A stretch of 64,000 nucleotides of DNA from Bryoerythrophyllum caledonicum (Eukaryota > Streptophyta > Bryopsida > Pottiales > Pottiaceae), in contig OZ020524.1 in NCBI GenBank assembly GCA_963971425.1, forward strand, positions 1,199,573-1,263,572, read 5' to 3'. Positions 20,661 to 42,843 of this stretch are shown here, one piece after another (the first letter of the stretch is position 1; the number at the start of each line of letters is the position of its first letter). The notes below the pieces were generated by a model that was given only the letters and a program-made list of their open reading frames with translations, was not told the origin of the DNA and did not search any database. The position numbers and the translations under genes are program-made.

Positions 20661-20664
20661 GGGG

Positions 20665-20684
20665 ATATTCAATAAAATGAGACA
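20665..20684 (+). repeat. Left terminal inverted repeat of the 22-kb element
   Basis: ATATTCAATAAAATGAGACA, paired with the right end at 42820-42839 with one mismatch. A second TGAGAC-type motif follows within 30 bases on both sides. Confidence 0.75.
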
Positions 20685-23415: not shown

Positions 23416-23704
23416 CTGAGAAACAATTGAAGAAAATGAATCGTTAAACAATTCTTTGAATTATGATAACATTGTATTTACAAAAATATACACTCCTCGT
23501 ATAGTACATCAAAATGCGTATGGATCTGACTCCTGCATGGAAACACATCCAAGAAAAAACCTACTGAGTCTGAGGTTGGGCACAGTCATTCCAAAAAATC
23601 AAGTCTGCACTTCGAGATAAAACGGGCAAAAATGTAATAAAAAGCTAGCCAATCTTATCCACCTCTGATGACTGTGGTCCTTGAGGCTCGGGAGACGGCT
23701 CGTA
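23416..23704. other. Spacer between the phosphatase-like gene and repeat R
   Basis: AT-rich with no convincing coding sequence; it may contain upstream exon or promoter parts of the phosphatase-like gene. Confidence 0.4.
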
Positions 23705-25475
23705 GTCGACGCGCTGTCGTGTAGAGAGGGGAGCGCCTTGAGAATTCGCAGGGAATCTGGCTGCGACTGGAGATTGTTTGCTCGGGAACCCAATCGTATC
23801 TTCAAATCTTCAGGTCTTTAGTCTCTAATCTTCAGTCTTCAGTCTTCAGTCTTCAAACTCCTCCCCGTTGGCCTATCCTGTGGTGGCTCTAAAGGGTTAA
23901 GGGTAAAGGTGGGTGATAAGAAACCACGGCCTCGGACGGGTAAAACGGGACGGCCAGACCACAAGCTGAAACCGTCCGAAAGATTGGCTCCTAAAATTCA
24001 AACCCACGGTGACCAGCAAACGTGCCTCATCGGTGGGAACAACATAAACACGACCGTGTGGGCAATTAACCCCACTTCGCCGCAACAGAGTTTACAAGAA
24101 CAGAATTGAAATACAACTAGCCTCCAAAGCTGGCTTGGAATCACAGAAAAAGAAATCGGACCACAAGCCACAACACACTTGTCTCCATCTTCTCTTCTCT
24201 TCAAGTCAAGCCTCAAGTCTTCAATTCCTCCATCCTTCAACTCCAAAGTCTTCAAGTGTTCAAAAACACTAAGAAACTCAAAAGAAGTGTTCAAAAACAC
24301 AATGGAAAACTTTCACCAAGGCTGTGACCTTCAAACAAGTGACACAGATGACTCAAAACTTCAAATACTAAGTGTAATAGCTCCCTGGAAAGCTAATTCA
24401 AACAACTAACACTCCTCCAAATTTCAAGTCAATCTAAACTACTGTCCGAAAGTTATGGACAATCAAAGTTTTGTCTACCCTTATTCATTCAGATCTCTAT
24501 AACTTCTTGCTCACAACTCCAAATCTCAATTGTAATATCTTTCTAGAAAGCTAAAATAGAGACGCATACACCCTCCAAATCTCAAAGAAAACTAAGAACT
24601 ACAGCAAAAGTTATCGCTTGTCAAACCTCTGCCTCTCAATGGATGGCCTCGAGTTTTCACAAAAAAAAACAAACCTTCATAACTTTTGCTACATAACTCC
24701 GAATTCAATTTTTGAAACGAGTATAGAAATCTCTGAAGACAAAGAACAAACCCTCAAATTTTCAATTCCATGCGAACAAAATTCGCTGAGCTACATACAG
24801 TCCAAGTTCTGCCCCAAAACCCTTGCTCTCTCACCCGCACACACACACACACACACTAAGGAATCTCTTTTTCCCACTTTTCCACCTCAAGTGGACGTGG
24901 GCACTTCAGCCCATGTCACCCTACCCAAAGTACCCCACAAGGTACTTCATTACTTTCTTATCCTTTCCACTTTCAACCACATAAAATCCCCTAGTCTTTT
25001 ATTTATTGGAAGACTAAAAACTTAGACCTTCCAACCAACAAGATAAGTAAAATAAAAAAATAACTATATAAAAATAAAAATAAAACTTATCGTAAGATAG
25101 CTGATGGTACGGACGTATAAAGGTGTTGATTCGCACAACCTGATCGCCAAGTCGTGGACTTGGTTGGCTGGAAATGTCGTGGTCAGTGGCCGCCGCCGGT
25201 CCGGGTTCGAACCCGATCGAGTCCGTCGAGTGGTTCGGCGGCCCACGGCTTGGCTCGCTAGTGAGGCAGGAAAAAATACCAGTCAACCCGCTACCTACCC
25301 CCCTGAGCAGTGACAAGAACGGTGCAGCACCTACATGCTAACACTTGCCCAAATCCTCAAACCGTGGTTCTTACCACGACCAAACCTTTTTACCCCAACT
25401 CCTTACTTATTAAAATCCACACATATAAAGACTAATACTTGTATGTACATGATGGAAGAATTTCCATCAGGACAA
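23705..25475 (-). repeat. Repeat R, copy 2 (inverted relative to 9515-11262)
   Basis: Homologous to copy 1 over its whole length, on the opposite strand. Read on the minus strand it begins with the last codons of the gene at 25403-30080 (CPDGNSSIM) and then gives that gene's 3' flank. It includes a GGGTTCGAACCC box (25203-25214) about 60 bases after a weak A-box-like string, and internal degenerate repeats of the type CTAGAAAGCTAA...CTCCAAAT. Possible identities: a 3' UTR-derived repeat, a tRNA-related sequence, or part of an old LTR. None is proven. Confidence 0.75.
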
Positions 25476-25662
25476 CGCTCCTCCATGCACACCTCTTCTC
25501 CCTCTACCGCAGCTACCGCATGGGATGACTCTTCCACAAGTTGAGCAGGGACCAAAAGAGTCGAACCGCCAGGAGCACCATCAACATTGACTTCACGCAC
25601 ACAAACAACAAAGTCGACCCCATCTGCCATAGGCGAAATCGGAGTTGAATTAAAAGGCAGGG

Positions 25663-25840
25663 TATCTTCGGGTCGAGGATACTCAGAAGGCCCAGACGAT
25701 GAAGAGGGGATATCCCCATGAAGAACTGGCACCTCAACCGAAACGTCGGTTTCTCCAAGTGGATTGGATGAAGTGCAAGGTTGCAATCCAGTTGAACGAA
25801 GCTGAGGCCCAACCACAGAGTTATCCTCGGTGCGAGGATA
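25663..25840. repeat. Two 19-bp palindromes inside an exon
   Basis: TATCTTCGGGTCGAGGATA (25663-25681) and TATCCTCGGTGCGAGGATA (25822-25840) are variants of the element's palindrome. They lie in the coding sequence of the third exon and on the minus strand encode the matching peptides YPRPED and YPRTED. Confidence 0.85.
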
Positions 25841-27057
25841 AGTGGAGGGATGAGACACGACGGATTCGGATGGAGCAACGGTGATGGGAACCGAAATGTG
25901 AGCTTGCTCTGCAAGACGACTGTTGAGTTCCACCAACATGTGCGCTTGGATCTCTGCACGGATTGACGCCGCCATCCTCTCCTTCTGTTGATTAGACTCC
26001 ACCCGCTGCTTCTCGAAAGCAGATTCCATCTTAGCCTGTCTCTTCTGGGTAGCCTCTAATTGTGCCAAGATCGTCTGCCTCTCCTGCCGCTCCTGTAGGC
26101 GTTGGTTGCGTTGGTGCTCATAAAAGTCAGCACCGGGTTCGTACGTTACAGGCAGCCCAGGGGCCGGAGCATGCCCAGCTGCATTTGCGAAGGTGTCATC
26201 AGATAAAGAAGCGCCATCCACCGGAGGGCGAGGGGCCGGAGCATGCCCAACTGCATCTATGGAGGCGGCCTCATGTAGGGGATCTCCACCTTCATCATCA
26301 CTGGAGTCGGACAGTAGGATGACACGGACATATTTTACAACGGTACGAGCGACGGGAACATCTGCTGCGGGGGCGGTACCAGCGATGGAAACATCTGCTG
26401 CAAGGGCCGTACCAGCGACGGGAACACCTGGTGCAGGGGCTATACCAACCAAAGGAGATATGTCATGACCACCTTGAACTTCCATATGAACGGCTTCACC
26501 GTCTACCGGAAGGTCTTCGTCCGCGAGCACAGGAGGTCGGCGCGGCGACGATCTACTACGAGATCGATATGACGGCTCACTATCATCCAAGCTAAGGATC
26601 GAAAGATCGACGCTGTCATTGCTCCCATATGGATTGACGAGCAAGGGAGAGTCATCCTGAGGAGGCTGATGAGTCGGTGCACCGCTAGCAGATGCCCTGT
26701 GGGTCTCGGGGGAGTCTTGCCGCGATGCAGCACCAGAGCGTTGAGCACGTTGGCGAACACGTTCAGCCCTCCTTGGCGAGATTCGGGCCCTTCCAACGCG
26801 TTCCGGAGGTGCAGCCGGAGCGGTTGATGTTGATGCACCTGCAGCGTTGGAAGCCAAAGGCTGCAGGTAGGCACAGTCTTTGTGGATGAAATCATTCATG
26901 TCCAACTGAAAAATGCGCTGCATTTGATTCTTGTACTGAAGTCGGAAGGATTCATCAATGAGTCCATAGAAAGATGTTCCAACCATCTGCATGACACAGG
27001 AGAAAGTAAGATTAAAAACTGGATAATGGAGAAAATCCTGAAATGAAATCAAATGAC

Positions 27058-27187
27058 TATCCTCGACTCGAGGATAAAACCACTGAAAAACTAATGATCA
27101 AACAAAACTGTCTATCCTCGAGTCGAGGATAGATTACAATGATACAGACGAAAGCATACTATAGGGTGTATCCTCGACTCGAGGATA
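27058..27187. promoter_or_regulatory. Three 19-bp palindromes in the second intron, about 55 bp apart
   Basis: TATCCTCGACTCGAGGATA at 27058-27076 and 27169-27187, and TATCCTCGAGTCGAGGATA at 27113-27131. Starts are 55 and 56 bases apart. All lie in the intron 26987-27215 of the minus-strand gene. Perfect 9-bp arms around one central base suggest a site for a symmetric protein dimer; the function is inferred. Confidence 0.85.
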
Positions 27188-28595
27188 GACTACAATGATC
27201 AAAATGACAACGTACCAGATTGGCCAGCATAAATTTGGAACCACCGAAAATTCCAAAAACCCTCTCCTTACGATTGCAGAAGTCTCGGAGTAGCTCCAAG
27301 TAAAACTCCATCCGTAATTACGAGCCGTGGACGGAGAATTCCGCCTCTAGATACTTATTCTTCTCTTTGTAGAAGAATGTATCTGGTGCAGAGTAGAACG
27401 GCCTCACTTTGTTGATGAGCACGGAAGCGTGGGGATGACTCTTCTTCACTAAGAAGAGTAGGTTCACATCCGTAACCTTAGCCCTGGACGTCCCGTAATA
27501 CAGGCGCTCATTGGCTGATGAAAGGTAAGTCGAGGAGACGGGCGAATACCGGGCCATCCGCTTCTCAGCAAACTTCGCAGCTTGCATCGCACGGTCTGCG
27601 GAGGAGGTGATCCAGATCCAAACATGAGGAGTGCTCATGTTTGGGGTACTCTTTTGCAACTTCATGGCATTCATGAAGTCTGCAAAGTATGGTTCGTCCA
27701 GGGAGTCGACCTTGGACAACCAGCCGGGTACCTCACGGAGGTCGAGAAGTCCCAGTGTAAACTCCTTAGAATCATCTAGAGGGGTGAAGTAATCACCAAA
27801 CTCCAGCTTCTCTGCATTAAACTCGCGGAGTTTCACATAACCGTCGTGCGGGGTGAACAAGTTCTTCAAATGTAGAAATTTCTTGAAGAACGGAAGAACT
27901 TTTGGGAACTTCTCTAGTAGATAAGATGCTCGTTTCAGCTTCCCCGCATTGGTCAACCTCATCGTCCAGAACTCCTTGTCGGGTTGACAGAGGAGCATGT
28001 TGTAAGTAGCAAAAGACACATGGTGTTTCTCCTTCCACTCCTTCCACATTGCGTCGTCGATCGACCCATTCGGAAGTAAAAACAATAAAGATGGGTCGAT
28101 GTGCACCAGCTCCTGCATGACGACGCGCTTCTTCTTCCTTCGATCAGCCCACTCCTCGTAGTGGTAGCATGATCCATGGACCACGCCAGTCCTATGAAGC
28201 GTGATCTTTGGATACCCTTGCCCGCGATCACTGTCAACCAGGTAAGTGAACAAATCTCTTAAATCCTGGTCAGACAAATGACCCAACCTCTTGAAAAACT
28301 CACGGTGGATTGGCGAAGGCTTGAAACCCCTAGCGTCTTTATATGGACTAGCTGTGTCGGGGTTTACGATGTCGCCGCGGCAGTGCAGATCGAGGAATTC
28401 TTCCCAGAGGTTGAAAATGTCATCTAGAAGAGTGATGATTTTAATCTCATTGGTAAGGTCCGATGACTTGTTTACTTGCTTCCCTTCCCTCGTGGGGTCG
28501 ATGTTCTAGAAGCGCGTGACAATCAACTTCGCAAACAATTGCATCACAGTACAGAGAACATTAGAAAAATTAATCAAGGATACCGCATAGAGGAG

Positions 28596-28691
28596 AATCC
28601 TCGGCTCGAGGATACTTTGACAAGTAGCATACAACTAATCAACTAACGGGTACACAAAAAGGCATGGAAGATTATCCTCGACTCGAGGATA
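28596..28691. promoter_or_regulatory. Two 19-bp palindromes in the first intron
   Basis: AATCCTCGGCTCGAGGATA at 28596-28614 (two substitutions) and a perfect TATCCTCGACTCGAGGATA at 28673-28691, 77 bases apart, in the intron between 28713 and about 28540 of the minus-strand gene. Confidence 0.85.
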
Positions 28692-30138
28692 ATTAAGGAA
28701 CTGGAACCTTACCAAGTACTTCTCCTAGTCGAAGTTGGCACCATTCATTCGCAAGTCGCCCTCATCGTGTTGGTAGCTGGGTCTACCAGAGTTGAGCCAG
28801 ATTCTCCTGCAGCTTGAAATCTGGTTTCCCCACGTTGGCTGGGCATGATCAAGGTGGTTAGTGTCGTTGTAGAACTTTGAAATCCTCTGCAACTTCAGAG
28901 GATCCGTTGTCCACACAACGTACGCATCCCAATGGCACAAGTCTCGTTTTCGCTGCTCCCCGCATTGTTCAACACGTTGAAGTCTTCTGGAAGCTTCGAC
29001 GCTATGTTGGCCATTGATTAGCATGAACTTCCCATTCTTGATATCGTCCCAGGAATTGGGCTTCCGCGTTATCGGTTCTCCAGCGTCATCGATCGGGCAG
29101 ATGCAAATCTTCTGACGCTAGTTTACCTCTCCAAGTTGGACCAGAAAATCCATGGAGTTTCGGACAATGCCCTCCTCCATCCCACGAATCACGAACTGTG
29201 CTTTGGCGGGCACACATTGTTCGATGTTCACGATGAATGTGGACTCGAACGGAAAGCATAAATTGCACTCCTCCCAAAACAATCTCTGTGATTCCGTTAT
29301 CTTCTCGAAGTCAACTTGGGGATCATTGCGCGATTTGGTCGGAGTTGCAGCCCTCGTAACAGTCGAGGTTGAACTCCCACCGGCCGTAGCAGTCTTCTTC
29401 TGTTTGGACGGTTCTTCTAGGTTGGAGGCCATCTCAGAAGTCCTCCGGGGAGCACCACGGCTCGTGCTTCGAGTCGCATCTGCCGCTTTTGTGGTAACCT
29501 CGCCGGTTGTTGCGCTCTTCTGCTTGGGCCGACGTCGAGGAGGTGGAGCGACCGGAACCGGGCGGGCCTCAAAGTTTGATAGGAGTTGGTGAATACGTAC
29601 CAGTCTCATGTTTACCTTCTCAGCGTCGTCATTTGACCACGGAATGTACTTTTCGAACGCTTGACGCAATGCCCCTTGTCCATTCTTATCGGCACTCTTA
29701 AGCAATTCGTTGAAGTCAAATTGCCCAGAAGGGTCACCGACTTTCACAACAATCGAGTGAAAGTGCGGTAGGTCTTTCCCAGCATCGTCCACGGCCTGGA
29801 TACCGAGAACGATGTAATCGCGACAGCGCTGCTCCACAAACGTCACTCTCTCATTTCTGTTCAATGGAACGTATGGAACTTCCTCCTTAAGTTTGAAAGA
29901 AAGATGAACGACCTTTTCCGACCTGAAGAGGGACCAACCAATGATGTCGGGGTTGAACGACCACAGCTTGCCGTAATTCTCGACGACATCATCGATGAAG
30001 GGCTGCGGGGCGACAGGATTTTCGAATTCCGTGATGAAGTACGTTGACCCTGAGTAGTCGTAGCCGTCGACGGGATCCATTGTGATGCTGTTATTTGCGA
30101 GGAGACATTTGGAAAACGAATTAGATGAAAACTATCAT

Positions 30139-30810
30139 TATCCTCGAGTCGAGGATAGTTATCAACTGATTCTGACTTTGATCATATTTTCTTGGAACTT
30201 ATCCTCGACTCGAGGATGTGAACATTATTATAATTGTGAAATGTAACAATGATCTAATGGTTACTGTTTCAGTGGTTGAATTGTATCCTCGACTCGAGGG
30301 TACTTCAATTATTTGAGACATATATTTTAGATATTTTACTTTATGCATCAGTCCGATCACATTCTCGAAGTATTATTTTCGAGATATATGGTTTTAATTT
30401 TATCGGAGCGTATACTAATCCCCTAAGGACTGAAAAGTATCCTCGAGTCGAGGATACTTTGATCAATCACGAAAGGATCTGTGTTAGAATACATCATAAC
30501 ATCTATTAAATACAACTTATTAATGGTGAGTGTTCTGATGAGTCAAATTATTTGATACTTAAGATATGTCCGTTTGCAGTAGACTTACACTTATCCTTGA
30601 CTCGAGGATACCCTATACTGCTATGGAGAAATTAGTAGAATATTTTGAAATAGCGGAAGTAATAATTCAGTTAATAACTACTTCATTATTTGTTTAACCT
30701 ACTTTATTCTCGACTCGAGGATAAACTGTAATCAGAGGATTGACTCTTATCCTTGACTCAAGGATAAGTTGCTAAACGAAGGTCTCGAATGTATCCTCGA
30801 GTCGAGGATA
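30139..30810. promoter_or_regulatory. Eight palindromes upstream of the ParB/methyltransferase-like gene
   Basis: Starts at 30139, 30200, 30284, 30438, 30592, 30706, 30749 and 30792, each 19 bp. Those at 30139, 30438 and 30792 are perfect; the others carry one to three changes. The cluster lies 60-730 bases upstream of the ATG at 30080 on the minus strand. A splice acceptor-like string (AACAG) just before that ATG makes a 5' UTR intron possible. Irregular spacing (43-154 bases) argues against simple tandem duplication and for kept sites. Confidence 0.87.
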
Positions 30811-33800
30811 AACTATGATATTTGTTGATCCAAAAACCCTAACTCCACAAATTACCGGTTATATTTTTACATTGGATTGAACTGGTTCTTCAGCATTGCA
30901 ACTTAAATGATTTTTGAAATGAGTACCTTGCAAAATGGTTTGAAGTCTGCTATGTGATTCTGTTCAACTGAATTGTACACAATGCAGTTGAGGAATATTG
31001 TAATGTGCACAAACGTAATCAACACAGAATGATGCACAATGTAATACAAAGCACTTGGAAATATGATCACAGCAAACTCTACACAGAAATGTCTATGTCT
31101 TGTAGAAACCCTAAACTCTCACGAAATCTTGCTATATGCTCTATGGCAAAATACTCTAAATCAAAACCCTGAACTCACTTTGTAACCCTAAATGCACCTA
31201 AACAATCACAGTAACTAACCTCTCTCAAGTATACACTTCACATAAACCTCACACAAATCTCACACGAACCTCACAAAACCTCACACAGACCTTAAACAAG
31301 CCTCACACACACAACTCACACTAACCTCACACAAACCTCACACAAACCTCACACACACACTCCTCACATACACACCTCACACACACACACACCTCAAACA
31401 AACCTCACATACACACCTCACACTCACAAACACTACTCACGCACCTCACACTCACAAACACTACTCACGCACCTCACACACTGAAAACCCTACACACAAA
31501 CCTCACACACACATACACTACTCACGCACCTCACACACACAAACCCTAGTCTCGCACCACACACACAAAACCTAGTCTCGCACCTCACACACACAAAACC
31601 TACACACATGTTCACTCGCACCTTACAGAAACCTCACACACCTCACACTTGGGGAGGGTTCGAAGTGGAAGGAATAATGGATAGGGTTTGAAGAAGAAGA
31701 GGAAATGGGAAGGTTTGGAGTGGAAGAGGGAACGAAGAACAACCGCGGGAGTGCACGCAGAGAAGGTGAAGAGAGAATGGGGAGAAAGGTGATGGAGTCG
31801 TGGTGGTTCACCGCGCCGCCAAATGCCTTTTTGGGCAGCGGGCAGTAGGCAGGGGAATTGGGCAGCGGGCAGTAGGGGAACGGGCAGCGGTCTTAAAAAA
31901 AAATCAAAAGAGAAACAAACGGGGACCTTTACTTCAAAAGGGACCTTTTAATCCAAAATTTTTACACCATTTCTTGTAATTGAAATGTCAACTAAATTTA
32001 CTTTAGTACACAAAACTAAATTTACTACTTTGGATTTATATTTACTAAATATTTACTAAATTTACATTTACTACTTTCTGGCTTCATTTACATTTACTAA
32101 ATTTTTAGATAATTTGCAATTGACTATTTGAACTAAATTTTTATTTACTATAGTAGTTTTTCTACTTCTTGTAAATTTGCACATGGAATGTTTGAAAAAA
32201 TTAGAACGTAGATATGGAACAAATGGAAAATCCCAAAAACTGGAGAACAAAAAATGTTCATAAGGAGAAATTTCGAAACTAGAACTACAAGATTAACAAA
32301 TTTTGAAATTTGATTTGAAAGAGACGAGGAAAAATAAAAGAAACTTTTCAAAACAAAACAAACATAAATATCTCATAAAAATAGAAATTTACATATCATA
32401 CTCAATACATATTTATTAAATATGCATCAAATATGCATTGAAAATTTTATTAATATTCAAATACACATTAAATATACATTAAAAATTTACAAGCAATTCA
32501 TTAAATACTCCTTTCTTATGCAAATATACATTAGATATTTTATTCATCCTAGGAAAAATAAATATAAAACTTTTCAAACTTATTAAAAACTATTGAAGTA
32601 TTCTCTAAATGATCTTTAAATATAATAATATACAATAAGTATTCGTTAAATATACATATGTTGAATAAATATTATTCAAACATATTGATATTTCTTACAT
32701 TTACAAATATTCCTTAAATATTTGTATATGTTTTTTTTAATATTCCTAAAAAGATACAAAGATACATTAACTATGCTTGATTCTTTGAAGATGCAATATA
32801 CATTAAATATTCTTGAAACAATCATTCAAAAATCATCTATTTTTTCTTTAATATAGAAATATACTTTCAATACTCTTGAAACATTCAATCAAAACTCGTC
32901 TGTGCATTTCTAAAATATAGAAACATGCATTAAATGTTCTTGAAACATTCATTCTATGACATGACAATGGGGGCTACAAGTACTTGGTAATTTCTTAACA
33001 AATAGTGTACAAGGGTAAATACACGATTTGTATCGTTACACTAAAAGCCATCTTGAGTGTAGTGGCAATGCGTGAAAATCTTTTACTATGGATAAAATGC
33101 ATTTTTTTGCTACAGACAATAATTGATTATGGACAGTATAAAAGAAAATGTATACAACTTACTAGTGTTGAAAATCTCAAATATAGTAGTGTGTTCTTGA
33201 AAAAAAATCGGAGTTGCCGGAAGTGCTCGTAAATCAACGAATTTTAAGAAATAGAATATACACTTTCATTGAAATCCAAATTGATATAGCATGCTAAAGT
33301 TCAATTTTATTTTTTTCAAACTACATGGAGTACTTTGTGCACATTCGAAAAACTAATGTTACAAGTGAATAAAAATCAATGGAGAAATCAATATACATAT
33401 GTACTTGGAAATGGAGAAATAAATCAAACTTTATTTAACTCTAAACAAACCCTTCATATCAAAAAAGAAAAAAAAACATAAAAAGTGGATTTCATTTCTT
33501 TATAACACCAAGGGAATTGAAGCAAATGTACAATATAGGTCTAATTGATTATATTTCATGGTATTGAGTTCAAAACTTAAAAATGTTCTTGTTCACTTAA
33601 TAAAGAAATTAATGCTATCCATAAATAATATTCACATAAGTACAAAGAAGTTTCTTTTTTAAGTGTTGTTGACTGTAATGAACTTTATGGATGATTTTGA
33701 TAATTTAGAGTACACAATTACAACTTCAGTTCAATAATAATTTATAATTTATACTTATGCACTAAAATGTATGTATGTGAATATGTATAGTCATGTGCAT

Positions 33801-34860
33801 AACAGGGAAATGGGAACCTAAAGGTGCGCACTGTGATCAAATTATTTGTCCCTAGGATTGCAAATAGAAAACTGTGCAAAATAATTCAAGAAATAAAGAA
33901 ACTATGTTTCTCATGAGTTTTATTTAAAATAACAAATATGATATTCCATTTGCAAATTCATGCATGAAAATGAAAATGTACTTTGACATTTTTACTATAA
34001 AGATACTTGTAAATAATAATATATATAAATTGACATGTACAAGCTGATTATTGGTTTTGCCATGGAATCCATTATCAAATATAAATGTTAAACTTACTTA
34101 CCTTTTCTTGGGAAGCAAAAGTAACAGCAAAAGAAATTTAAATGCAAGCAAATAATTTGATCATACACCACATAGCAACTTGTAATATCCAAAGCTCCAA
34201 ATATTTTTGTAAATTACTAATATAAATAAAACCCTAAACCACGTTCTTAAAAATGAACTATTAAATTCAACTCATATTAGTTAAATGTGTGTCTAAGACA
34301 CACATACATAGACTCACGCATAAAACACACACACTCACACACACTCACACACATTGAATTTAAGTTGAGAAATGAGAAGAAGAATGGGTTTCAATTAAAG
34401 TAAATTTGTCAATTTCTAACTAAAGATTGCAACATTATTTTTTTAACCAAAGAATGCCACTTCTAAAAGTAACTTATCTAGTACGATGTAAATACTATTT
34501 ATGGGTAGCATTCGAATAACACCAAGTGCAATATATTCACCAATGTTGATTCAAATGGAATATATTCACCAATGTGGATTCAAGTGGAATTGAAGTGGAT
34601 ATATATCTTTATACACCAAGTGAATTTGGATTTCAATTAAAGCGTATATTCCATTTATATTTTATTTTTATTGCGGGCTTTCCCATCAACTCCCAAAACT
34701 TTTGCCAAGACACAAGACTATATTTTTGATTTTCAACACTAGGTTAAGTTTATTTTATATGGTCCCGAATCTTTTAAAGTTTGTAGTGAAAAAATGCATT
34801 TTATCCCACTCAAATATGTTCACAAAATCCACAAATAGTCAGCCAAGGATGTAGAAAAAC
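30811..34860. other. Central non-coding region of the 22-kb element
   Basis: Four kilobases between the two divergent gene starts contain no credible coding sequence. It holds a CA-rich low-complexity block (31226-31650), very AT-rich stretches with repeated AAATATACATT-like words (32380-32900), a short CACACA tract near 34320-34355, and the left border of the pogo copy near 34.86 kb. Promoters for both outward-facing genes are expected at its edges. Confidence 0.55.
31226..31650. repeat. CCTCACACA-rich low-complexity tract
   Basis: Many variants of cctcacacaaac / cctcacacacac follow each other, with partial higher-order copies such as cacctcacactcacaaacactactcacg occurring twice. It is an ordinary microsatellite/minisatellite mixture. 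Confidence 0.8.
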
Positions 34861-36962
34861 ATAATTCTATTCTACATATAATTTTCTACATAGATAACAT
34901 GGTGTCTTTAGGTCTTTGCTCCAAAAACTTCTTCAAAGTTTGAAGGGCACTACCTACATCTTTAAAGCCTACAACTTCTTCTATTGTATCGTGAGGATTA
35001 GCTTCATCAGGATCACTATCTTCGTGTTCACTACCTTGTTGTTGAGATGGAAGCATTTCAATAAATTTCTTCATCAGTGGGCTGATAAGGATTATTCAAA
35101 TCAAACTCCATCTCATAATTTAAGTACTCTTGAACATTCATGTAAGGGGTCTCTGTCTTAGAGGATATCAAACTTAGTTGTTCCAGTACAGCAGGAGCCT
35201 CCTCTACCTCTTTCGTGCGCTACTCTTGAAGGACTTCATTTTCTACATGAACTGAAAGAATTCCGGTGATAGTGTCTTCAACAATTTCGAATTGTTGTTG
35301 GCGTCAGTCCATTACGCCAAGCCTTCTCAACCATGGTCACATCTTGGTACACATCAATTGCCAAACTCTTGCTAGTTGAAATACAATCTATTTGATGTTG
35401 AATTAATAACTTCTTGTATTGAGCTTTGAATGATGCAATGATCCCTACATCCATAGGCTAGAAACGACTAGTTGTATCTGGAGGCAAAAACTCTAATCGT
35501 GTCACCTTCAATCTTGAATCTACATTAGGCACTTGATGTCCAGAAAAAGTATCCACCAACAAAAGTATTTTTTCTATCTGGGCACTTACCATCCTCCTCT
35601 CAAAATATAACATAAATTGTTAAAAAATTTGTGTTGTCATCCATGCTTTTTTATTAGCATGCCATTGTATACCTAGATTTTCTGGGTTTAGAATGTGCGT
35701 GCTTGTAAAAGCTTGAGGCTTCAAATATTGATTGATAACCAATGGAGGAAGAATGATGCTTCCATCAGCATTTGCGGTAAGTGCCACAGTGATGTGCTCC
35801 TTCTGCTTTTTTTTCCAGATAACCTTTTCGTATCTAATGTACGATTTGGTTCCAATCTGTAAAAAAGACCAGTTTCATCCTTATTTAAAACATCACTACT
35901 CTTGTATTGAGATACAAGTGTTTTGATGTCTTCCATTTTCTTAAAAAACATCAGATTCAGGAACGTCAGCTGATGTGTCTTCTCCATGACGGGTATGGCC
36001 CTTGATATTATATCTCTTCTTGAAATTTTGCATCCATCCATGAGAAAATTGAAGCTCCTTCTCGTTAGCACCTCTAGGAAGTAATGCGTAAAATCTCTTT
36101 GCAGCAGCCACCACAAGGTCATCAGATAAAACAAATTATTTTCCTGTATTATCGTAAACCAAGTAAAAGTAGCTTCCTCCACTTCTGGGCATTGAGACTT
36201 TTGTAAGCGCTTGGAATCACCGAGGTGCCCAACGTCAAGTCCACTAAAGTGTTCTTTTAGCTTTACTATTCTTCCAATATCCATCTCAGACGCGTTTACT
36301 TGAAAGTGTGCATTTGCCCACACAATTAATGCTCTATTGGTAATCTTTCCACCACTAGCTAACAGAGTCTCACGATATTGAATAATCTCTTGTACTTGCT
36401 CTAACGTGAACTCATGACCCTTTGCCATTGCAAACTATAGGAAATTTTCTTGAACAATATATCTTCTATTGATGAATTTGCAATACAAATTAAAACTCTA
36501 ACAACATATATTCTATGAATGAGTTCACAACACAAATAATAATTCTATAGCCTTCAGTCTCTTCTTATAGTCTTTGCCGCCTTGCCTAGTTGCCTTTCAT
36601 TATTAAGTTAAAAGTACACTTATCTTTTACTTTATGAGCTTAAAAATATATGATCTATTAGTTTATGAACTTAAAATACATCTACCTATCAATTTGTTTC
36701 TAGAATGGACATCTAGAGTCACTTTGCAACAAGAAACTATTACTTCACCTCAAAATTATCTCCCAGCAAGCAATGGTTCTAATGAAAAGTCTTTTTCTGG
36801 AAACTTATCATTTACCGAGGTAAAATCAACAAAGTTGGGAGCGCGACATTGCATAACACAACACATAACACTTACTAGTCTTAATTTTAAGGAGCGGAAA
36901 TCTCCTTAACACATATAGAGTTTTAACACTTATCGAGGTAAACATAACGAGGTTTGACTGTA
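34861..36962 (-). mobile_element. pogo/Tigger-like transposon, copy B, minus orientation
   Basis: The right end (36921-36962) carries the same terminal repeat as copy A, reading on the minus strand TACAGTCAAACCTCG and then CTCGATAAGTGTTAAAACTC, next to a TA. The transposase is on the minus strand: the N-terminal domain (MAKGHEFTLEQVQEIIQYRE) ends near 36428, and catalytic and C-terminal parts run down to about 34886 (LQTLKKFLEQRPKDTMLS). The left terminal repeat is not clear, so the left end is approximate and may be truncated. It shares several hundred codons with copy A. Confidence 0.78.
34886..36428 (-). pseudogene. pogo-like transposase, copy B
   Basis: Starts MAKGHEF with the CENP-B-type helix-turn-helix, followed by VEEATFTWFTIIQENN and, in another frame, the first catalytic segment (VLNKDETGLFYRLEPNRTL). 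The DDE core continues on the minus strand down to about 35300 (segments equivalent to LLLVDTFSGHQVPN and FLPPDTTSRF), with stops and shifts on the way. The C-terminus near 34886-35074 is acidic (SEHEDSDPDEANPHDTIEEVVGFKDVG). Frameshifts, for example near 36090, show it is inactive. It preserves codons that copy A has lost, such as GAG where copy A has TAG at 9286. Confidence 0.75.
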
Positions 36963-37545
36963 CAAGGTCTAAATCTCTTACCATTGTCTTAAGCGTGATG
37001 TTTCACATACATTTCCCAACACACCAAGTTTTAGAGGTAAAAAAGGGGTGTAGCATATTCAAAACAAGTGTGCAAGGAGGGGAGGTTCAAAATTGATATT
37101 TCACACATATTTTGGTGAACTACGTATGTTTTCGAAACATGAAGATCTCTAGGTTTTATGTAGATAGATGAAGTTTTTTTCCCCGTTGCCCGGCAATGTG
37201 TGAAAATGTTTGAGTTGGGATAAAATTCCTTTTTCCACTATAGACAAGAACTATTTTTGAAAATTTCAAGTGAAGAAAATATTTGTTATTTATGTGATAA
37301 ATCTCAATGTCAATAGAAACTTTTGTCAAATATTTTGGAGCTGCCCGGAGTCCCCGTTTTTTTACTTTGAGTGGTACTTACATTTAAACCGCAAAACTAT
37401 TATTTTAAAAAAAAAACCTCCTAGTAGCTCTTAATAGAGGCAATCTACTGTAAATTTTTCTTTAAAAATTGAATTTTGGTCAAATTTTAGGTACATGCCC
37501 GAAATCCAATTTGATCCCGTGGGGACAGTTGATCATTTAGGGTTT
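36961..37545 (-). mobile_element. piggyBac-like MITE, copy 3, partial, minus orientation
   Basis: Reverse-complement homology to the MITEs at 5393-6333 and 60334-61285 is clear. It contains atgaagatctctaggtttta, TGCCCGGCAATGTGTGAAAA and ggtgtagcatattcaaaaca, and ends near 37540 with a decayed terminus (TTTAGGG). Its other end is cut exactly where the pogo copy B terminal repeat and TA begin, so the pogo element probably inserted into it. The missing part was not found left of copy B. Confidence 0.75.
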
Positions 37546-38320
37546 TTTTTTTGTTTTTTTTTGGGTTGGTTTTGTTTGGTTTTTTGTGGACACAAGTAAA
37601 GAGAGCCTTTACTGCACACAAAGGAAGGATTCCTGCACAGAAAAGGAAGGCATCACTTATCCAATGCATCACTTTTTCAATGCACGCGTCGATTCCAGGC
37701 TAGTGGCTTACTGAAATTAGTGCGTATGTCAAACCCAAAATAGGACATCGGCAGCTAAGAAGTAGGACTGTGGATACCATTTCCCGCCCCCCAAATCCTG
37801 GAGCCGTTGGAATAAAGTTTTCCCGCCTAACGCCACTTTTTGTGCTCTGCTTCGCAGAAGACTACCGGATGCTCATTTTCAGAAGTTCATTTCCTACTCT
37901 TGCACCTACTGCATCCTCTTTTTTCTCTCTGTACTTCGCTCAGTGTCTTCCTTGTTTTGAGAACATTCACAGTAGTCGTCAAAAATATGTCTGAGTTTAT
38001 CTGAAGTATGTTTGTATTTCTTTTTCATTTGCGCATCCGTGTGGAGAGCTCGATTTCCTCTCAAGGGTACATCAACATCAAGAGATTGTTGTCTGAGGCT
38101 TAGCTGTGATCATTCGAGGGCTACCCGACCCGAGCCCGTAGGCCGTCCGCATCACGGCTGTGTATTCAAAGTATGTGTATTTCTTTCATTGTCGAAATCA
38201 TTATTGTCGGTGTAGTACTTCTAATGCACCGTAGAATTTGTTTGCAATTAAGCTGTGAATGCTCCACCACTACTCATTATCACTGTAGCATAGCACTTTA
38301 CTATTTTTAGACTAACCATT
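37546..38320 (+). promoter_or_regulatory. Probable promoter and 5' UTR exon of the DUF7869-type gene
   Basis: This stretch ends in GC-richer sequence with a good splice donor (CAAA|GTATGTG, about 38167). The DUF7869-type start codon at 39273 directly follows a splice acceptor (ATTGTAG, ending 39272). I infer a 5' UTR exon here and an intron of about 1.1 kb that contains the palindromes at 38321-39127. No coding sequence is recognised. Confidence 0.45.
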
Positions 38321-38662
38321 TATCCTCAGGTCGAGGATAAATCAGATTCTTGAAAGTCAGGTGTTGATCAACAAATCCTATGAGTGAGATCCTCGTTACA
38401 TTTATCCTCGGGTCGAGGATAACACTGACTCTTGCTAGTTCGTTGGTTGACCAACGTGACCTATGAGAGGATCCTCATTTCATTTATCCTCGGGTCGAGG
38501 ATAACACGGACTCTTGCTTGTGCATCAGTCGACCAACGTGACCTATGAGAGGATCCTCATTTTATTTATCCTCGGATCGAGGATAACTCTCGCTTGTACA
38601 ACAGTTGATCAACAAATCCTATGAATGAGATAGTCATCAAATTTATCCTCGGGTCGAGGATA
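38321..38662. promoter_or_regulatory. Tandem array of 82-bp units, each with a 19-bp palindrome
   Basis: Palindrome starts at 38321, 38403, 38485, 38567 and 38644: spacings 82, 82, 82 and 77. Core form TATCCTCGGGTCGAGGATA (variants CAG and GGA at the centre). Between palindromes the unit repeats words such as GACTCTTGCT, GACCAACGTGACCTATGAGA and ATCAACAAATCCTATGA. Confidence 0.9.
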
Positions 38663-38786
38663 ATACGGCCTTTTGCTAGTTCGGGTGTCGATCAACAAAT
38701 CCTATGAATGATTCCTTATTTAAGGACTGAATTATTTCTTCGGTTGAGATTAACTTTAGAGTACTTCAAATTATTAGTAGTCGGTC

Positions 38787-39127
38787 TATTCTCAACCCGA
38801 GGATAATCTCATATTATTTATTAAGAAATGCCAATCTGAATTTTATCAACTCCTCTTGTATACTTATAAGAAGAAATCGTCTACACTTCATTTTTTCTCG
38901 AGTCCGTAATGAACTTTTAATCGTCGATGATTGACCTGCTTAATTCTTCTCGTCTTCAATGTATCTTTACGAGTATATAAATGTCTGTTGATATTTTTTA
39001 AAACGGCTAGGATGTCGCTGTCTCCATTGGAACCATACTATTAGTATCCTTGACTCGAGGATAGTGTTTAAATAAATATTCATGTGTATTTCTAATTTCT
39101 CTCATTCATATCCTTGAGCCGAGGATA
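38787..39127. promoter_or_regulatory. Three further diverged palindromes upstream of the DUF7869-type gene
   Basis: TATTCTCAACCCGAGGATA (38787-38805), TATCCTTGACTCGAGGATA (39045-39063) and TATCCTTGAGCCGAGGATA (39109-39127). The last lies about 145 bases before the start codon at 39273. Confidence 0.8.
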
Positions 39128-39272
39128 CTTGGTGGCGTTTTTGGATATTGCCTTTGTGCCTATATGCAGTTGTCCAAATTTATATCGCTTTGGATTTAAG
39201 GTGTTTATTATTTTTTATATTTCAATGAACTTCATTTATGAACTAAAGCCACGTCAAATTGATATATTGTAG

Positions 39273-42086
39273 ATGGAAGGAGACTCATTTGATGTCAGAG
39301 ATCGAGCTCCTCCAACCTTGCCTTCCGATGTTGCTCCTTGTGAGGGTATTCCTCGCGCTGCCTGGTTTTCAAAGCGCGTTATCCTTCGAAACATATCAGG
39401 GAATAACGTCGGAATCGGACTATGTCAGAGTGTTGATTCCAGTTTAATTCCTGAAACTGGAGGCCGGCCATTTGGAGATGACCATGTCGCGATTCTTATT
39501 GTTGAATCCTTAAATGAGGATGATATTCCCTTGAATTGGATGTTTGCTCTCCGAGCATGGCCAATTCGACATGTCTTTCTTCGTAATGTGAGTTTGTACG
39601 ACCAAGAGCAAACTAGCATTTACAATGCCGCTCTGAAGGTATTCCGTCGGGGTCCAAGAATTGGTCTTCGACAGTATGAGAGTAATCGGTCGAGACGAGT
39701 GCTGCCTTCCCCACCAAAGAAGGAAGTACTCCTTTCTGCACAATCAATCAACCTTGTTGCGAGCGTTGTTTGTTGTCCAAGAAATTGTAAGCAACGCTTT
39801 CCGCGGAGTTTGATTTTTGTACTTCGAACACAAGTTCACAATGACATTGGAGGTGTATACTTTCGGAAACATGTTTTGCTTGATGTGCATAGGCAAATGC
39901 ATATTGACTCCAATGGCAACCATGTGGTGACGCTCGATGGAATTGATGTATGCCAAGATGCATGGTGTACAATCATGGGGGTTAGCCGAGCCACATTCTA
40001 CCGATACAAAAGTGATGCCAAGGATGAAGTGCGAGCGATGGCACATGGCAATTCTGGGACTAAGAAGCCTCGCATCCATACTCTCCAAGCAATTGCTACA
40101 TTGCACGACCTACTTGACGATGCTGCTGATAGTAGTCCTAACAAGACTACTACACTTGGCACTAGGGAGAAGGTTGTTTCGAAACATCTTCCCTCCTCTT
40201 TTCAATGGAGTGCAGTGTTGCCCAAAGTGAATGAGGTGAATTCAAGATTTGGCCTCAAACCAATATCTTTGTCTGGTCTTAGCCAAATTCGGAGCTCTGA
40301 ATTTGAACATTTTTCCACTAAGAAGCCAGGTGACAACTTTGCTCGCTGCAGTAGATGCGACCAATTGAAGCAATTGAAGAAGGCTAGTACACGAGGGTCG
40401 TCTGCATTCAATACGTGGGATACCAAATTGAAGTTGCATCACGCCTCCCAACAGACTCATCGTATTTTATATTATGGGAACCGGAAGAACTCGGAGGATA
40501 GACGTGATGACGTTGTTTGCATCATCCATGATAAAATGGATCACATCAAAACAGCATCTCCCCATTTTTCTCACAAGAATAAGGCGACGGAGTCCTTCAT
40601 GAAACTCCCTGTAGCTGTGACTGGAATGATTGCTCATGGACATGGAGATGTCCGTTATGCGCATTATAGTCTTGACATCTTCCCCACCGACTCGAATCAC
40701 ACTGTTGGATCCATTGCTAAGTTGCTTCGGGACTTAGAAAGTCCACCGACGTATTCTTCTCGTGAATTATTTGCAAAAGGGAGAGCTTCTCCACTGTCTG
40801 AGGCTGTGCTTGCTAATGCCAATAAGTGCCTTGGATCCCTTGCGGCTCCACCGGTTGAACCTGTTCCTGCAAGGCACTTACCACCAATTCTACAAATGCA
40901 ATTGGATAATGCCACAGGAGACAATAAGAATAGATTTGTGTTTGCTTTCTTCTCCCTACTTGTTCATTTGGATATTTTCCGAGAAGTACACGTGAACTTC
41001 TTACTTGTTGGTCATACTCACGAGGATATTGATGCAATGTTTGGAAGATGGAGTACCAAACTTAAGTCAAATAGCTATCCAACGATTCCACTCTTGATGA
41101 AGTCATTCATGGATGTTGAAGAAAAGCCAGTTATTCCACATCTTATTGAAGAGGTGCCCGACTTCAAGGGCTTTCTTAACGGATATTTGTGCATCGGCAA
41201 TGAGGCCCTCACAGGTCATATAAAGGGCCAGCAGTTCAAATTTTACAAGGATTCTGATGGTTTGCCAAAGATGCAGTACAAAATTCTTAGTACAGACAGG
41301 GATTGGTTGCCCGAGGAGAATGGAGGAATTCAGTTGTGGAAAATGACGGCAGATGGTAGACCAATATTGCCTCATGGGCAGCCACTTCCTCTTAATCCGC
41401 GACGTCATGAGAATTATGACAAGGTTATGAAGGCTATTTCTAGATTTCTAAGTCTTTGGAAATCCATGGCAAATGAGGATATCTCAGGTGAATACATGAG
41501 GAAGAATGAGCATATGATGTATTATTGGAGAGGTGTAAAGGCTGCTCTTGAGGTGCCATTGGAACAATCGACTTCTCTACGAGAGGGATTTTGGCCTCTA
41601 TCTAGATATGCTCCATCTATGGTGGATGAGTACGATATAGATGGTACATTGAGGGAGGAGTATGCCGAAGACCCTTCATTCATTGGACAACGACGTCATT
41701 GTCCGTCTCCATCGTTTCGGGTTGGTAGAGATGTATATGAGGGCTATGTACTTGCGGTGCGTTCAGCTGATGGGGATTTGCGCCCATTTTGGATCGCCTT
41801 GGCATTGACTAATCCACATCCAGATCGTGAACATTCTCATGAGATTAAAGTGCAATACTACAAACCTGCATCTCAACGTCATGTGGACTTAGAAACGTAC
41901 CAAGGGTGGGATTCTAGTAATGGGAACAATTGGATAGAAGAATCTGAATCTGAACCAATCTGGTTATATACAGATTGCATTGTAACAGCTTGGAAGCTTA
42001 GGTTCCGTGGGAACACTAGTTCTTCGAGGCTCAAAATTCCAAAATCACAGGTAGAAATAATCAAGGCATCTTTAGCTGAATATTAG
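39273..42086 (+). CDS. DUF7869-type protein, candidate transposase of the 22-kb element
   Basis: An uninterrupted 937-codon frame, the only intact long gene of the element; its ATG follows a splice acceptor directly. Residues about 231-250 (WCTIMGVSRATFYRYKSDAKD) look like a helix-turn-helix. A Cys pair (CSRCDQ) lies near 359. Three acidic motifs in order could form an RNase H-fold DDE/D triad: IIHDKMD (about 417), QLDNATGDNKN (about 543) and VGHTHEDIDAMF (about 580). This set is, to my knowledge, typical of the DUF7869 family found in many copies in plants and other eukaryotes. Transposase function is inference, from the triad, the DNA-binding motif, and the intact frame inside an element with inverted termini. 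The last 350 residues match no domain I recognise. Confidence 0.72.
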   Translation: MEGDSFDVRDRAPPTLPSDVAPCEGIPRAAWFSKRVILRNISGNNVGIGLCQSVDSSLIPETGGRPFGDDHVAILIVESLNEDDIPLNWMFALRAWPIRHVFLRNVSLYDQEQTSIYNAALKVFRRGPRIGLRQYESNRSRRVLPSPPKKEVLLSAQSINLVASVVCCPRNCKQRFPRSLIFVLRTQVHNDIGGVYFRKHVLLDVHRQMHIDSNGNHVVTLDGIDVCQDAWCTIMGVSRATFYRYKSDAKDEVRAMAHGNSGTKKPRIHTLQAIATLHDLLDDAADSSPNKTTTLGTREKVVSKHLPSSFQWSAVLPKVNEVNSRFGLKPISLSGLSQIRSSEFEHFSTKKPGDNFARCSRCDQLKQLKKASTRGSSAFNTWDTKLKLHHASQQTHRILYYGNRKNSEDRRDDVVCIIHDKMDHIKTASPHFSHKNKATESFMKLPVAVTGMIAHGHGDVRYAHYSLDIFPTDSNHTVGSIAKLLRDLESPPTYSSRELFAKGRASPLSEAVLANANKCLGSLAAPPVEPVPARHLPPILQMQLDNATGDNKNRFVFAFFSLLVHLDIFREVHVNFLLVGHTHEDIDAMFGRWSTKLKSNSYPTIPLLMKSFMDVEEKPVIPHLIEEVPDFKGFLNGYLCIGNEALTGHIKGQQFKFYKDSDGLPKMQYKILSTDRDWLPEENGGIQLWKMTADGRPILPHGQPLPLNPRRHENYDKVMKAISRFLSLWKSMANEDISGEYMRKNEHMMYYWRGVKAALEVPLEQSTSLREGFWPLSRYAPSMVDEYDIDGTLREEYAEDPSFIGQRRHCPSPSFRVGRDVYEGYVLAVRSADGDLRPFWIALALTNPHPDREHSHEIKVQYYKPASQRHVDLETYQGWDSSNGNNWIEESESEPIWLYTDCIVTAWKLRFRGNTSSSRLKIPKSQVEIIKASLAEY

Positions 42087-42819
42087 ATTTCAACAAGTTT
42101 TTTGTTTTTTATGGCAACAGTTATCCTAGTCATTCGAAATAGGTAGGGGTGCATGTTCTCATTTAAACTTGTGTTGTGTCGGACTAGATATTGTACTAAG
42201 TATGTACTGAACATGGAGGTCTGTCGTGGAATTGAGACTTTGAATGTTCGCGTAGCATATTTGTAGACAAAATTAGATTAGAATTTGTAGTTTAATATAG
42301 TGATGTATTGTGTTGCTTCAATATCATTAAACGTTGCCGTTTGTTTATAAAGTTATTGATGGATAAATTGTGGTTCACATTGTGTGTTTGATTAATTGTG
42401 CATTTATCTTTGATGCATGGATACTTTCTATTAATATAAATATTTGAATGTATTTCTACAGTAGGTGCTAATTTTTTAGTGATTGGTATTTCAATGACCT
42501 TGTTGTTTGAAACACGTACCACTTTTTGAAATTGGTAATTTTTATTTTCCTTTAAATTGAGAAGACATGCATTTTGGGTGGCTTGTAAATGAGTGTAAAT
42601 GTCTTATTTTAGTTTAATTTTGAGCCCTGCTAGGGATGCTCAAATTTATATCCGCTCAAATTTTTATGGAGTATTTTGTATTCTTGCTATGATAAATTTT
42701 TGGGATGTAGTAGTTGGCAATTTCAATCCAGCTTAAGTCTCAATTTAATAAATATTCTCAAATTAATGAAATAGTAAATTGACTATAATTAGACACCATG
42801 ATAAATTGAGACTCTGAAA
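42087..42819. other. Non-coding right arm of the 22-kb element
   Basis: AT-rich sequence between the DUF7869-type stop codon and the right terminal repeat. Several TGAGACT / AGTCTCAATTT words (near 42733 and 42805) echo the subterminal sequence of the left end. No coding sequence. Confidence 0.55.
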
Positions 42820-42839
42820 TGTCTCATTTTAATGAATAT
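42820..42839 (-). repeat. Right terminal inverted repeat of the 22-kb element
   Basis: On the minus strand this reads ATATTCATTAAAATGAGACA, 19 of 20 identical to the left end at 20665-20684. LINE coding sequence resumes about ten bases further on. Confidence 0.75.
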
Positions 42840-42843
42840 GGCG

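What the first reader, a model, noticed from the sequence alone, without database searches (positions are those of the whole stretch)
25663..39127. 23 copies of a 19-bp palindrome confined to the 22-kb element
TATCCTCGASTCGAGGATA and close variants start at 25663, 25822, 27058, 27113, 27169, 28596, 28673, 30139, 30200, 30284, 30438, 30592, 30706, 30749, 30792, 38321, 38403, 38485, 38567, 38644, 38787, 39045 and 39109. Symmetric changes in some copies (TATCCTTGACTCAAGGATA at 30749) hint that both half-sites are selected together. Surrounding sequences are mostly unrelated, so the site itself is conserved. Candidate roles: binding by the element's HTH protein for autoregulation or transposition, or methylation by its methyltransferase-like product.
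Basis: partly seen in the sequence, partly recalled or inferred. Interest (0 to 1): 0.9.

Follow-up and report, generated by a model that had tools for sequence, protein, structure and literature searches.

The report
Palindrome array in a moss transposon
A 22-kb jumping gene in what is probably a moss genome carries some twenty near-identical 19-letter palindromes, placed in front of its two main genes and in the introns of one, that appear to be private docking sites by which the element controls itself.

Summary
In detail: 23 copies of TATCCTCGASTCGAGGATA (at most 3 mismatches), none expected by chance, all inside one element (two coordinates off by one). The element is a real DNA transposon: 20659-42845, 4-bp target duplication CATT, inserted in a LINE; 15 of 16 copies checked show exact 4-bp duplications. 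It encodes a DUF7869 protein (probable transposase) and a three-exon accessory gene, broken here. Sites lie within 1 kb upstream of the accessory gene (8) and of DUF7869 (8), in two introns (2+3) and in a coding tail (2). All 30 DUF7869 loci read (28 distinct places) have 6-8 sites upstream. Subfamilies with synonymous divergence of 0.5 or more keep the site (about 30 bits) while flanks are unrelated. Two coding sites keep frame and codons, so selection acts on DNA. Of 32 sampled clusters of exact sites, 20 were aligned to the element (one weakly) and 12 lie beside element genes. Half-site covariation is not above chance in the core. Sites are absent from the element's ends, so synapsis is unlikely. 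Best reading: binding sites of an element-encoded dimer, probably the accessory protein, for self-specific transcription control or anti-silencing, as in VANDAL/VANC. Binder and effect are inferred; ParB or methyltransferase membership is unsupported.

The parts
20659..42845 (.). DNA transposon, 22,187 bp, inserted in a LINE (the LINE is cut after 20658 and resumes at 42850 after the second CATT)
   Evidence: LINE frame interrupted; the empty site with one CATT aligns without a gap across the junction to the related LINE at about 48.2 kb in the window
20655..20658 (.). Target-site duplication CATT, left copy
42846..42849 (.). Target-site duplication CATT, right copy
   Evidence: 15 of 16 left/right pairs read in the genome have an exact 4-bp duplication
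20659..20684 (+). Left terminal inverted repeat AAGGGGATATTCAATAAAATGAGACA (most other copies read AACACCATATTCATTAAAATGAGACA)
   Evidence: (I8)
42820..42845 (-). Right terminal inverted repeat; TGAGAC/GTCTCA motifs at both ends, no palindrome
38321..39127 (.). 8 palindromes upstream of the DUF7869 gene (38321, 38403, 38485, 38567, 38644, 38787, 39045, 39109); the first four sit in an 82-bp tandem repeat
30139..30810 (.). 8 palindromes upstream of the accessory gene (30139, 30200, 30284, 30438, 30592, 30705, 30748, 30792)
28596..28691 (.). 2 palindromes in intron 1 of the accessory gene (28596, 28673)
27058..27187 (.). 3 palindromes in intron 2 of the accessory gene (27058, 27113, 27169)
25663..25840 (.). 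2 palindromes in coding exon 3 (25663, 25822), read on the minus strand as Y-P-R-x-E-D
22167..22185 (.). Probable decayed 24th site (5 mismatches); E2 has 3-mismatch sites at 1526 and 1625 in the comparable stretch
39273..42086 (+). Intact DUF7869 ORF, 937 aa, probable transposase
   Evidence: PF25273, E 1.1e-44; dN/dS 0.09-0.16 between the distant subfamilies; 0.40 between the window's copy and its close relative L008
28713..30080 (-). Accessory gene exon 1 (splice sites read by eye); two in-frame stops in this copy (codons 321 and 452)
27216..28538 (-). Accessory gene exon 2 (at the intron-1 acceptor this copy reads CAA where E1 and E2 read CAG)
25476..26986 (-). Accessory gene exon 3, low-complexity tail; its 3' end is cut off by 1.76 kb (23716-25475) that E1 lacks
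22418..23238 (-). Remains of an FCP/SCP-like (NIF) phosphatase gene carried by the element; a longer open copy in E2 (L040:1871-2683)
   Evidence: E 2e-4, just under the cut-off; PF03031, E 6e-11 in E2

Best explanation
The palindromes are about 21-bp operator sites (TTATCCTCGASTCGAGGATAA) for a dimeric DNA-binding protein encoded by the transposon itself, most likely the product of its fast-evolving three-exon accessory gene. By docking upstream of both element genes and in the accessory gene's introns, the protein recognises only its own element in a 437-Mb genome and controls its transcription, most plausibly by keeping element chromatin open or unmethylated as VANC proteins do on Arabidopsis VANDAL elements, possibly with feedback control. 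Shown: the element, the sites, selection on the DNA sequence, restriction of the sampled exact sites to the element family, and placement at likely regulatory stretches rather than at the ends. Inferred: that a protein dimer binds, that it is the accessory protein, and that the effect is activation or anti-silencing.
For: Placement: 8+8 sites in the two 1-kb upstream stretches (1.0 expected each if uniform), 5 in two introns (0.4 expected), 0 in exons 1 and 2, the DUF7869 ORF, the right end and the left arm. 30 of 30 DUF7869 loci have 6-8 sites in the 1.5 kb read upstream (three of them share their flank, so 28 distinct places, the window included). Site information is 30.4 bits over 19 bp in 118 nonredundant sites, flanks about 0.1 bit per position, with a symmetric outer T/A pair that the search did not select for. 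An exact copy of the consensus occurs upstream of DUF7869 in each of the six groups compared, although DUF7869 dS between the distant groups is 0.50-0.72 and the accessory exons of E2 and the window align at 67-68% DNA identity. Non-CpG positions in sites differ half as often as neighbours: 38/3355 against 806/38416, P 5e-5. Exon-3 sites are kept in the same frame with nearly the same codons, and the following residue varies (N, T, R, S) but its codon always starts with A in the nine complete ones. 32 of 32 sampled clusters of exact sites lie in (20 aligned, one weakly) or beside (12) element copies. Arrays grow by tandem units carrying one site (82 bp), as described for VANC targets, which also sit in introns and upstream of the transposase gene (PMC5735166, sections 7-9 read).
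Against: No binding, expression or methylation data. No DNA-binding domain was recognised in the accessory protein. Unlike VANC targets, which diverge fast with their protein, this site stays constant while the accessory protein diverges (55% identity over the aligned 927 residues of E1 and E2, mostly exons 2-3). CpGs in sites decay about as fast as outside (26/851 against 88/2277, P 0.33), so there is no sign of local hypomethylation. The DUF7869 protein is better conserved and could be the binder.
Confidence: 0.5

Rival explanations
1. The DUF7869 protein itself, through its N-terminal HTH-like segment, binds the palindromes, either to repress its own and the accessory gene or as accessory sites for transposition.
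For: Like the site it is strongly conserved (dN/dS 0.09-0.16 between distant subfamilies); a weak HTH match at residues 224-248 (E 0.05-0.08, below cut-off); 8 sites lie directly upstream of its gene.
Against: The ends that a transposase must bind hold no palindrome but a different motif, TGAGAC; in the window's element the nearest sites lie 3.7 kb from the right end and 5 kb from the left; in E2 two 3-mismatch sites lie 1.3-1.4 kb from the left end. A transposase alone would not need sites in the introns and coding exon of another gene.
Confidence: 0.22
2. The sites are DNA-methylation or modification targets (TCGA/CTCGAG cores) of the accessory protein, or sensors of host CpG methylation.
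For: The consensus has two CpGs placed symmetrically; the accessory protein ends its second exon with a motif resembling methyltransferase motif I, clearer in P0098/P0099 (FGGSKP/FGGTKP; read by eye).
Against: 19-21 bp is far longer than known modification sites (recalled); no methyltransferase family matched and I saw no DPPY-like motif by eye; CpG decay in sites is not different from outside.
Confidence: 0.08
3. Binding sites of a host transcription factor that the element exploits as enhancers.
For: Upstream and intronic placement would suit enhancers.
Against: The 32 sampled clusters of exact sites are all in or beside element copies; about 30 bits is unusually specific for one plant factor (recalled).
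Confidence: 0.06
4. RNA-level hairpins acting in splicing or small-RNA production.
For: Perfect palindromes could fold in intronic or 5' RNA; five sites are in introns.
Against: 16 of 23 sites lie upstream of the start codons, up to 0.95 kb away; paired changes in the core are not above chance, though a hairpin would favour them.
Confidence: 0.04
5. Passive repeats spread by tandem duplication and gene conversion without function.
For: Some sites lie in 82-bp tandem units.
Against: 118 sites have unrelated surroundings, with sharp conservation limits at the palindrome; frame- and codon-matched copies in the coding exon; slower change than neighbours at non-CpG positions.
Confidence: 0.03

Closest known systems
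VANDAL elements and VANC anti-silencing proteins (Arabidopsis; PMC5735166, sections 7-9 and abstract; PMC10398659, abstract and introduction)
   Same: Element-specific motif arrays in introns of the accessory gene and upstream of the transposase gene; tandem-unit growth; a fast-evolving accessory gene next to a conserved transposase.
   Different: VANC21 motif is a 9-base YAGTATTAY, not palindromic, arrayed in one orientation and quick to change; here a 19-21 bp palindrome conserved across subfamilies and also built into a coding exon. The transposase candidate (DUF7869) and 4-bp duplication differ; anti-silencing is untested.
CACTA/Spm elements and TnpA (passages of PMC2613891 seen)
   Same: Large plant DNA transposon with two proteins, one of them presumed to bind short repeated motifs and to regulate the element.
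   Different: TnpA motifs are subterminal and act in excision; here the ends have no palindrome. No CACTA terminus; 4-bp, not 3-bp, duplication.
ParB-parS (bacterial partition; recalled)
   Same: Works like it in form only: a long palindrome of very high information kept constant while proteins diverge, several per replicon; the accessory protein has a GQHSVxA motif resembling ParB box II (by eye).
   Different: No ParB match in Pfam scans at E up to 1 (accessory protein) or 10 (P0098); eukaryotic transposon; no partner ATPase noticed (not searched for).

Membership tests
Cut-and-paste DNA transposon with terminal inverted repeats | Terminal inverted repeats and fixed-length target duplication | tested here: met
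   26-bp terminal repeats; exact 4-bp duplication in 15 of 16 left/right pairs, of varied sequence; empty site shown
Cut-and-paste DNA transposon with terminal inverted repeats | DDE/D transposase with RNase H fold | tested here: inconclusive
VANDAL/VANC-type anti-silencing system | Element-specific motif array in noncoding stretches of the element, dense and absent elsewhere | tested here: met
   for exact sites sampled on contig C1; two sites lie in a coding exon, which is different
VANDAL/VANC-type anti-silencing system | VANC protein homology (DUF1985/DUF287) and its own kind of transposase (VANA) | tested here: not met
   No such Pfam match in the accessory protein; the transposase candidate is DUF7869
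VANDAL/VANC-type anti-silencing system | Accessory protein binds the motif and removes DNA methylation | not testable with these tools
   Needs binding and methylation assays
CACTA (CMC) superfamily | CACTA-type termini, 2-3 bp duplication, tnp2-type transposase | tested here: not met
   Ends AACACC, 4-bp duplication; no such Pfam match
ParB-parS | ParB/sulfiredoxin-fold domain (PF02195) in the presumed binder | tested here: not met
   Pfam scans at E up to 1 and 10 and a PDB profile search show none; resemblance by eye only. The direct PF02195 genome search did not complete
DNA methyltransferase / restriction-modification | Methyltransferase domain with motifs I and IV | tested here: not met
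   No family match; motif-I-like stretch only, by eye

The most novel reading that the evidence does not exclude
A eukaryotic transposon family carries its own parS-like addressing system: a 21-bp, roughly 30-bit palindrome, about as much information as is needed to be unique in the host genome, loads a transposon-encoded protein (ParB-like and methyltransferase-like by motif, too diverged for profile search) that coats the element from its promoters and introns and shields it from silencing. The constraint is strong enough to have been written into the protein-coding tail of the binder's own gene. The DUF7869 protein would be a new superfamily of DDE transposases.
Probability: 0.13. Interest if true: 0.88.

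Novelty: new variant of a known kind. Interest (0 to 1): 0.64.

Why it matters
Sequence-specific anti-silencing by transposons is known in detail essentially from Arabidopsis VANDALs (as far as I know). A second system, in a different transposon family and probably a bryophyte, with a much longer and stable recognition site, would show that private self-addressing evolved more than once and would give a clean, testable 21-bp binding site, useful for targeting chromatin effectors. It would also give a first function to part of the DUF7869 family.

Tried and rejected
Half-site covariation as evidence of co-selection: tested, not above chance in the core. Helical phasing of site spacing: none seen. 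Protection of CpGs inside sites: none. ParB, methyltransferase or HTH membership of the accessory protein: nothing better than E 0.2 in Pfam for the E2 protein, E 0.17 for P0098, E 0.21 in PHROGs, nothing in NCBIfam (searches used the E2 protein without most of exon 3). The PDB hits (E 0.28 and worse; E 0.016, to an ATP-synthase subunit; E 0.022, 59 residues) I took for chance and did not follow. Relatives in viral contigs: none for exact motif or protein. DUF7869 in papers: no paper in the held library. A search for moss DNA transposons led to PMC7466625, of which I saw passages only: Mariner elements PpTc1/PpTc2, nothing like this. Short non-autonomous copies: the 28 left/right pairs within 70 kb that can be made from the listed ends are 19-23 kb long in 17 cases, longer in 10 and 12.7 kb in one, but only 40 of 284 and 40 of 455 candidates were scored. 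Not done: a genome search with a more distant DUF7869 protein (P0001) to see whether remoter families lack the site; the machine stayed busy.
Full report
OBSERVATION. The pattern TATCCTCGASTCGAGGATA with up to 3 mismatches occurs 23 times in the window and never in 100 shuffles. The cut at 3 mismatches is natural: inside the element 7, 8, 6 and 2 windows have 0, 1, 2 and 3 mismatches, none has 4, one has 5; outside the element (41.8 kb) none has 5 or fewer; of the shuffled-arm palindromes of the same composition (200 drawn) none had a window within 3 mismatches in the element (largest count at exactly 3 in E1 and outside the element: 1).

THE ELEMENT. A LINE reading frame (endonuclease and reverse-transcriptase part before 20.66 kb, RNase H part after 42.85 kb) is interrupted by 22,187 bp, 20659-42845. 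The interruption is bordered by the 4-bp repeat CATT, and the joined flanks with one CATT align without a gap across the junction to a related LINE at about 48.2 kb. Ends are inverted repeats, AACACCATATTCATTAAAATGAGACA in most copies read. Sixteen left/right pairs were read: 15 have an exact 4-bp duplication, of varied sequence; one (C11:9368447) does not match. Left- and right-end searches list 40 places each (40 of 284 and 40 of 455 candidates scored). From these, 28 pairs within 70 kb can be made: 17 are 19-23 kb long, 10 longer (25-63 kb, presumably nested insertions or mispaired ends), one 12.7 kb.

HOST. The window lies in a genome of 437,360,962 bases in 894 contigs, unnamed. The named homologues of the DUF7869 protein come from the mosses Ceratodon purpureus (51 and 57% identity) and Physcomitrium patens (45 and 49%), so a moss is likely but not proven.

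GENES. (a) 39273-42086, plus strand, 937 aa, DUF7869 (PF25273, E 1.1e-44), intact. Forty-nine copies were scored out of 5029 candidates, 83-100% identical to the query. Between the distant subfamilies dN is 0.05-0.09 and dS 0.50-0.72, ratio 0.09-0.16 (close pairs: A-B 0.16 and 0.21, C-D 0.10, window against L008 0.40): strong purifying selection. In 40 homologues the motifs HDKMD, LDN...NKN and GHTH[DE]DIDA are nearly invariant, which suggests a DDE-type transposase; this is inference, as Pfam, PDB sequence and profile searches find no known transposase and structure prediction was off. (b) An accessory gene on the minus strand with three exons: 28713-30080, 27216-28538 and about 25476-26986 (splice sites read by eye, the same in E1 and E2). 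In the copy E2 (L040-L042) it is open and gives 1416 aa. It matches no family (its remote relative P0098 none either). Homologues found outside this genome are two unnamed proteins, P0098 (27% identity) and P0099. Motifs resembling ParB box II (GQHSVxA) and methyltransferase motif I (FGGSK) were seen by eye only. In the window the gene is broken: two in-frame stops, a changed splice acceptor and 1.76 kb at 23716-25475 that E1 lacks. 125 copies of exon 1 were scored genome-wide (of 863 candidates). (c) Remains of an FCP/NIF-type phosphatase gene, open in E2 (PF03031, E 6e-11).

WHERE THE SITES ARE. In the window's element: 8 within 1 kb upstream of the accessory gene, 8 within 1 kb upstream of DUF7869, 2 in intron 1, 3 in intron 2, 2 in exon 3; none in exon 1, exon 2, the DUF7869 ORF, the 7.2-kb middle, the left arm (4.7 kb) or the right end. 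All 30 DUF7869 loci fetched (L007-L036, the window included; L022, L023 and L026 share their right flank and are probably one place assembled three times) have 6-8 sites in the 1.5 kb upstream of the ORF (L008 has one more beyond its right end). E1 and E2 repeat the layout: upstream of the accessory gene, intron 1, intron 2, exon 3, upstream of DUF7869 (gene positions). E2 differs in also having sites at 9731, 10494 and 16154 in the middle and two 3-mismatch sites (1526, 1625) near the left end.

SELECTION ON THE SITE. From most of the fetched DNA 377 sites were collected, 118 after removing those with similar surroundings. Information is 30.4 bits over 19 positions (sum of the per-position values, no small-sample correction; added up) and about 0.1 bit per flanking position, with a symmetric outer pair T(0) 61% / A(20) 59% that the search did not require: the true site is about 21 bp. 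For comparison, one place among both strands of this genome takes 29.7 bits. The core values are raised somewhat by the 3-mismatch cut, but the near-empty gap keeps that small. Within subfamilies, non-CpG positions of sites differ at 38/3355 against 806/38416 outside (P 5e-5, not corrected for shared descent); CpG positions do not differ significantly (26/851 against 88/2277, P 0.33). In exon 3, five elements of four subfamilies each show two palindromes in the stretch read, always in phase 0, reading Y-P-R-x-E-D (once Y-P-Q; once, in C845, with a stop at the R codon). In the nine without a stop the codons are TAT CCT ... GAG (7) or GAA (2) GAT, and the next residue changes (N, T, R, S) but its codon always begins with A; codon use gives about 0.017 per site for full agreement. 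A peptide constraint alone would not keep the first base of a varying codon, so the DNA is constrained.

RESTRICTION TO THE ELEMENT. 5823 places in the genome match at up to 3 mismatches, 135 for the reversed control. The call lists only the first places: 95 distinct exact sites, all on contig C1, in 32 clusters. Twelve clusters lie within 15 kb of a scored gene copy and were not read further, save one (L006). The other 20 were read (L001/L004 and L005, L058-L075) and align to the element, with the sites masked in the element copies; 17 of those 18 stretches align over 624-2000 bp, one (L069) over 106 bp only, next to its site. So the 32 sampled clusters are in or beside element copies. Inexact sites and other contigs were not sampled this way.

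Paired changes in the two arms are not above chance in the core: 3 observed, 2.8 expected for 118 sites (8 against 6.2 in all 377). Including the outermost and innermost pairs there are 34 against 27.6 (P 0.05; 97 against 78.9, P 0.002, in the redundant set), most of them at the outermost pair; this is weak support for symmetry at that pair. A role in synapsis is unlikely because the ends hold TGAGAC motifs and no palindrome. Methylation of the cores has no support (no methyltransferase match).

MECHANISM. The layout is that of an element-specific regulator: dense arrays upstream of both genes and in introns, growing by tandem units (82 bp in the window; no helical phasing). This is how VANC21 targets lie on VANDAL21: in introns of VANC21 and VANB21 and upstream of VANA21, in tandem repeats, with motif density important for localization (PMC5735166, sections 7-9 read). 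VANC binding there removes DNA methylation in the element only (abstract and introduction of PMC10398659). I therefore think that an element protein, most likely the accessory one, binds the 21-mer as a dimer and keeps the element expressible. The differences are real: the VANC motif is short, not palindromic and changes quickly, whereas this site is long, palindromic and constant across subfamilies, closer in form to bacterial operators or parS sites (recalled). Constancy of the site with divergence of the protein means that the DNA-contacting part should be among its conserved pieces; residues about 391-460 and 241-330 of the E2 protein are the best conserved in exon 1 (76-87% against 38-70% elsewhere).

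LIMITS. No binding, expression or methylation data could be had; remoter DUF7869 families of this genome were not examined because the genome search did not complete; other moss genomes were not available.

Noticed in passing
Genome contig C1 (65 Mb): 7 of 9 scored DUF7869 copies on C1 have in-frame stops against 15 of 40 elsewhere; C1 is the longest contig seen and may be rich in decayed copies, perhaps a sex chromosome or other low-recombination region (guess).
   Followed up: no
22418-23238 (minus); L040:1871-2683: The transposon carries an FCP/SCP-like phosphatase (NIF domain) gene, open in E2 and broken in the window: a cargo gene that could act on RNA polymerase II (guess).
   Followed up: partly
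33090-34806: Inverted repeats of 58, 43 and 34 bp about 1.3-1.6 kb apart: probably a nested foldback or MITE-like insertion, shared with E1 at 92%.
   Followed up: no
35721-36428: An ORF resembling a pogo/CENP-B-type transposase by eye lies in the middle of the element, in a stretch that E1 shares; no Pfam match.
   Followed up: no
L037-L039 (E1), beyond its right end: Directly after the right end of E1 comes DNA resembling the left arm of E2 (69%), with a degenerate palindrome: nested or adjacent copies.
   Followed up: no
L022, L023, L026: Three DUF7869 loci on contigs C845, C6 and C361 share their right flank: probably one place assembled three times.
   Followed up: partly
C11:9368447-9389920: The only one of 16 copies without a matching 4-bp duplication (AATG/TAGT), perhaps recombined.
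   Followed up: no
E2 at 9731, 10494 and 16154; L069: Three identical palindromes (TATCCTCGAATCAAGGATA) lie in the middle of E2; L069 shares 106 bp with E2 beside the second of them, so a repeat unit carrying a site may exist apart from the rest of the element.
   Followed up: no
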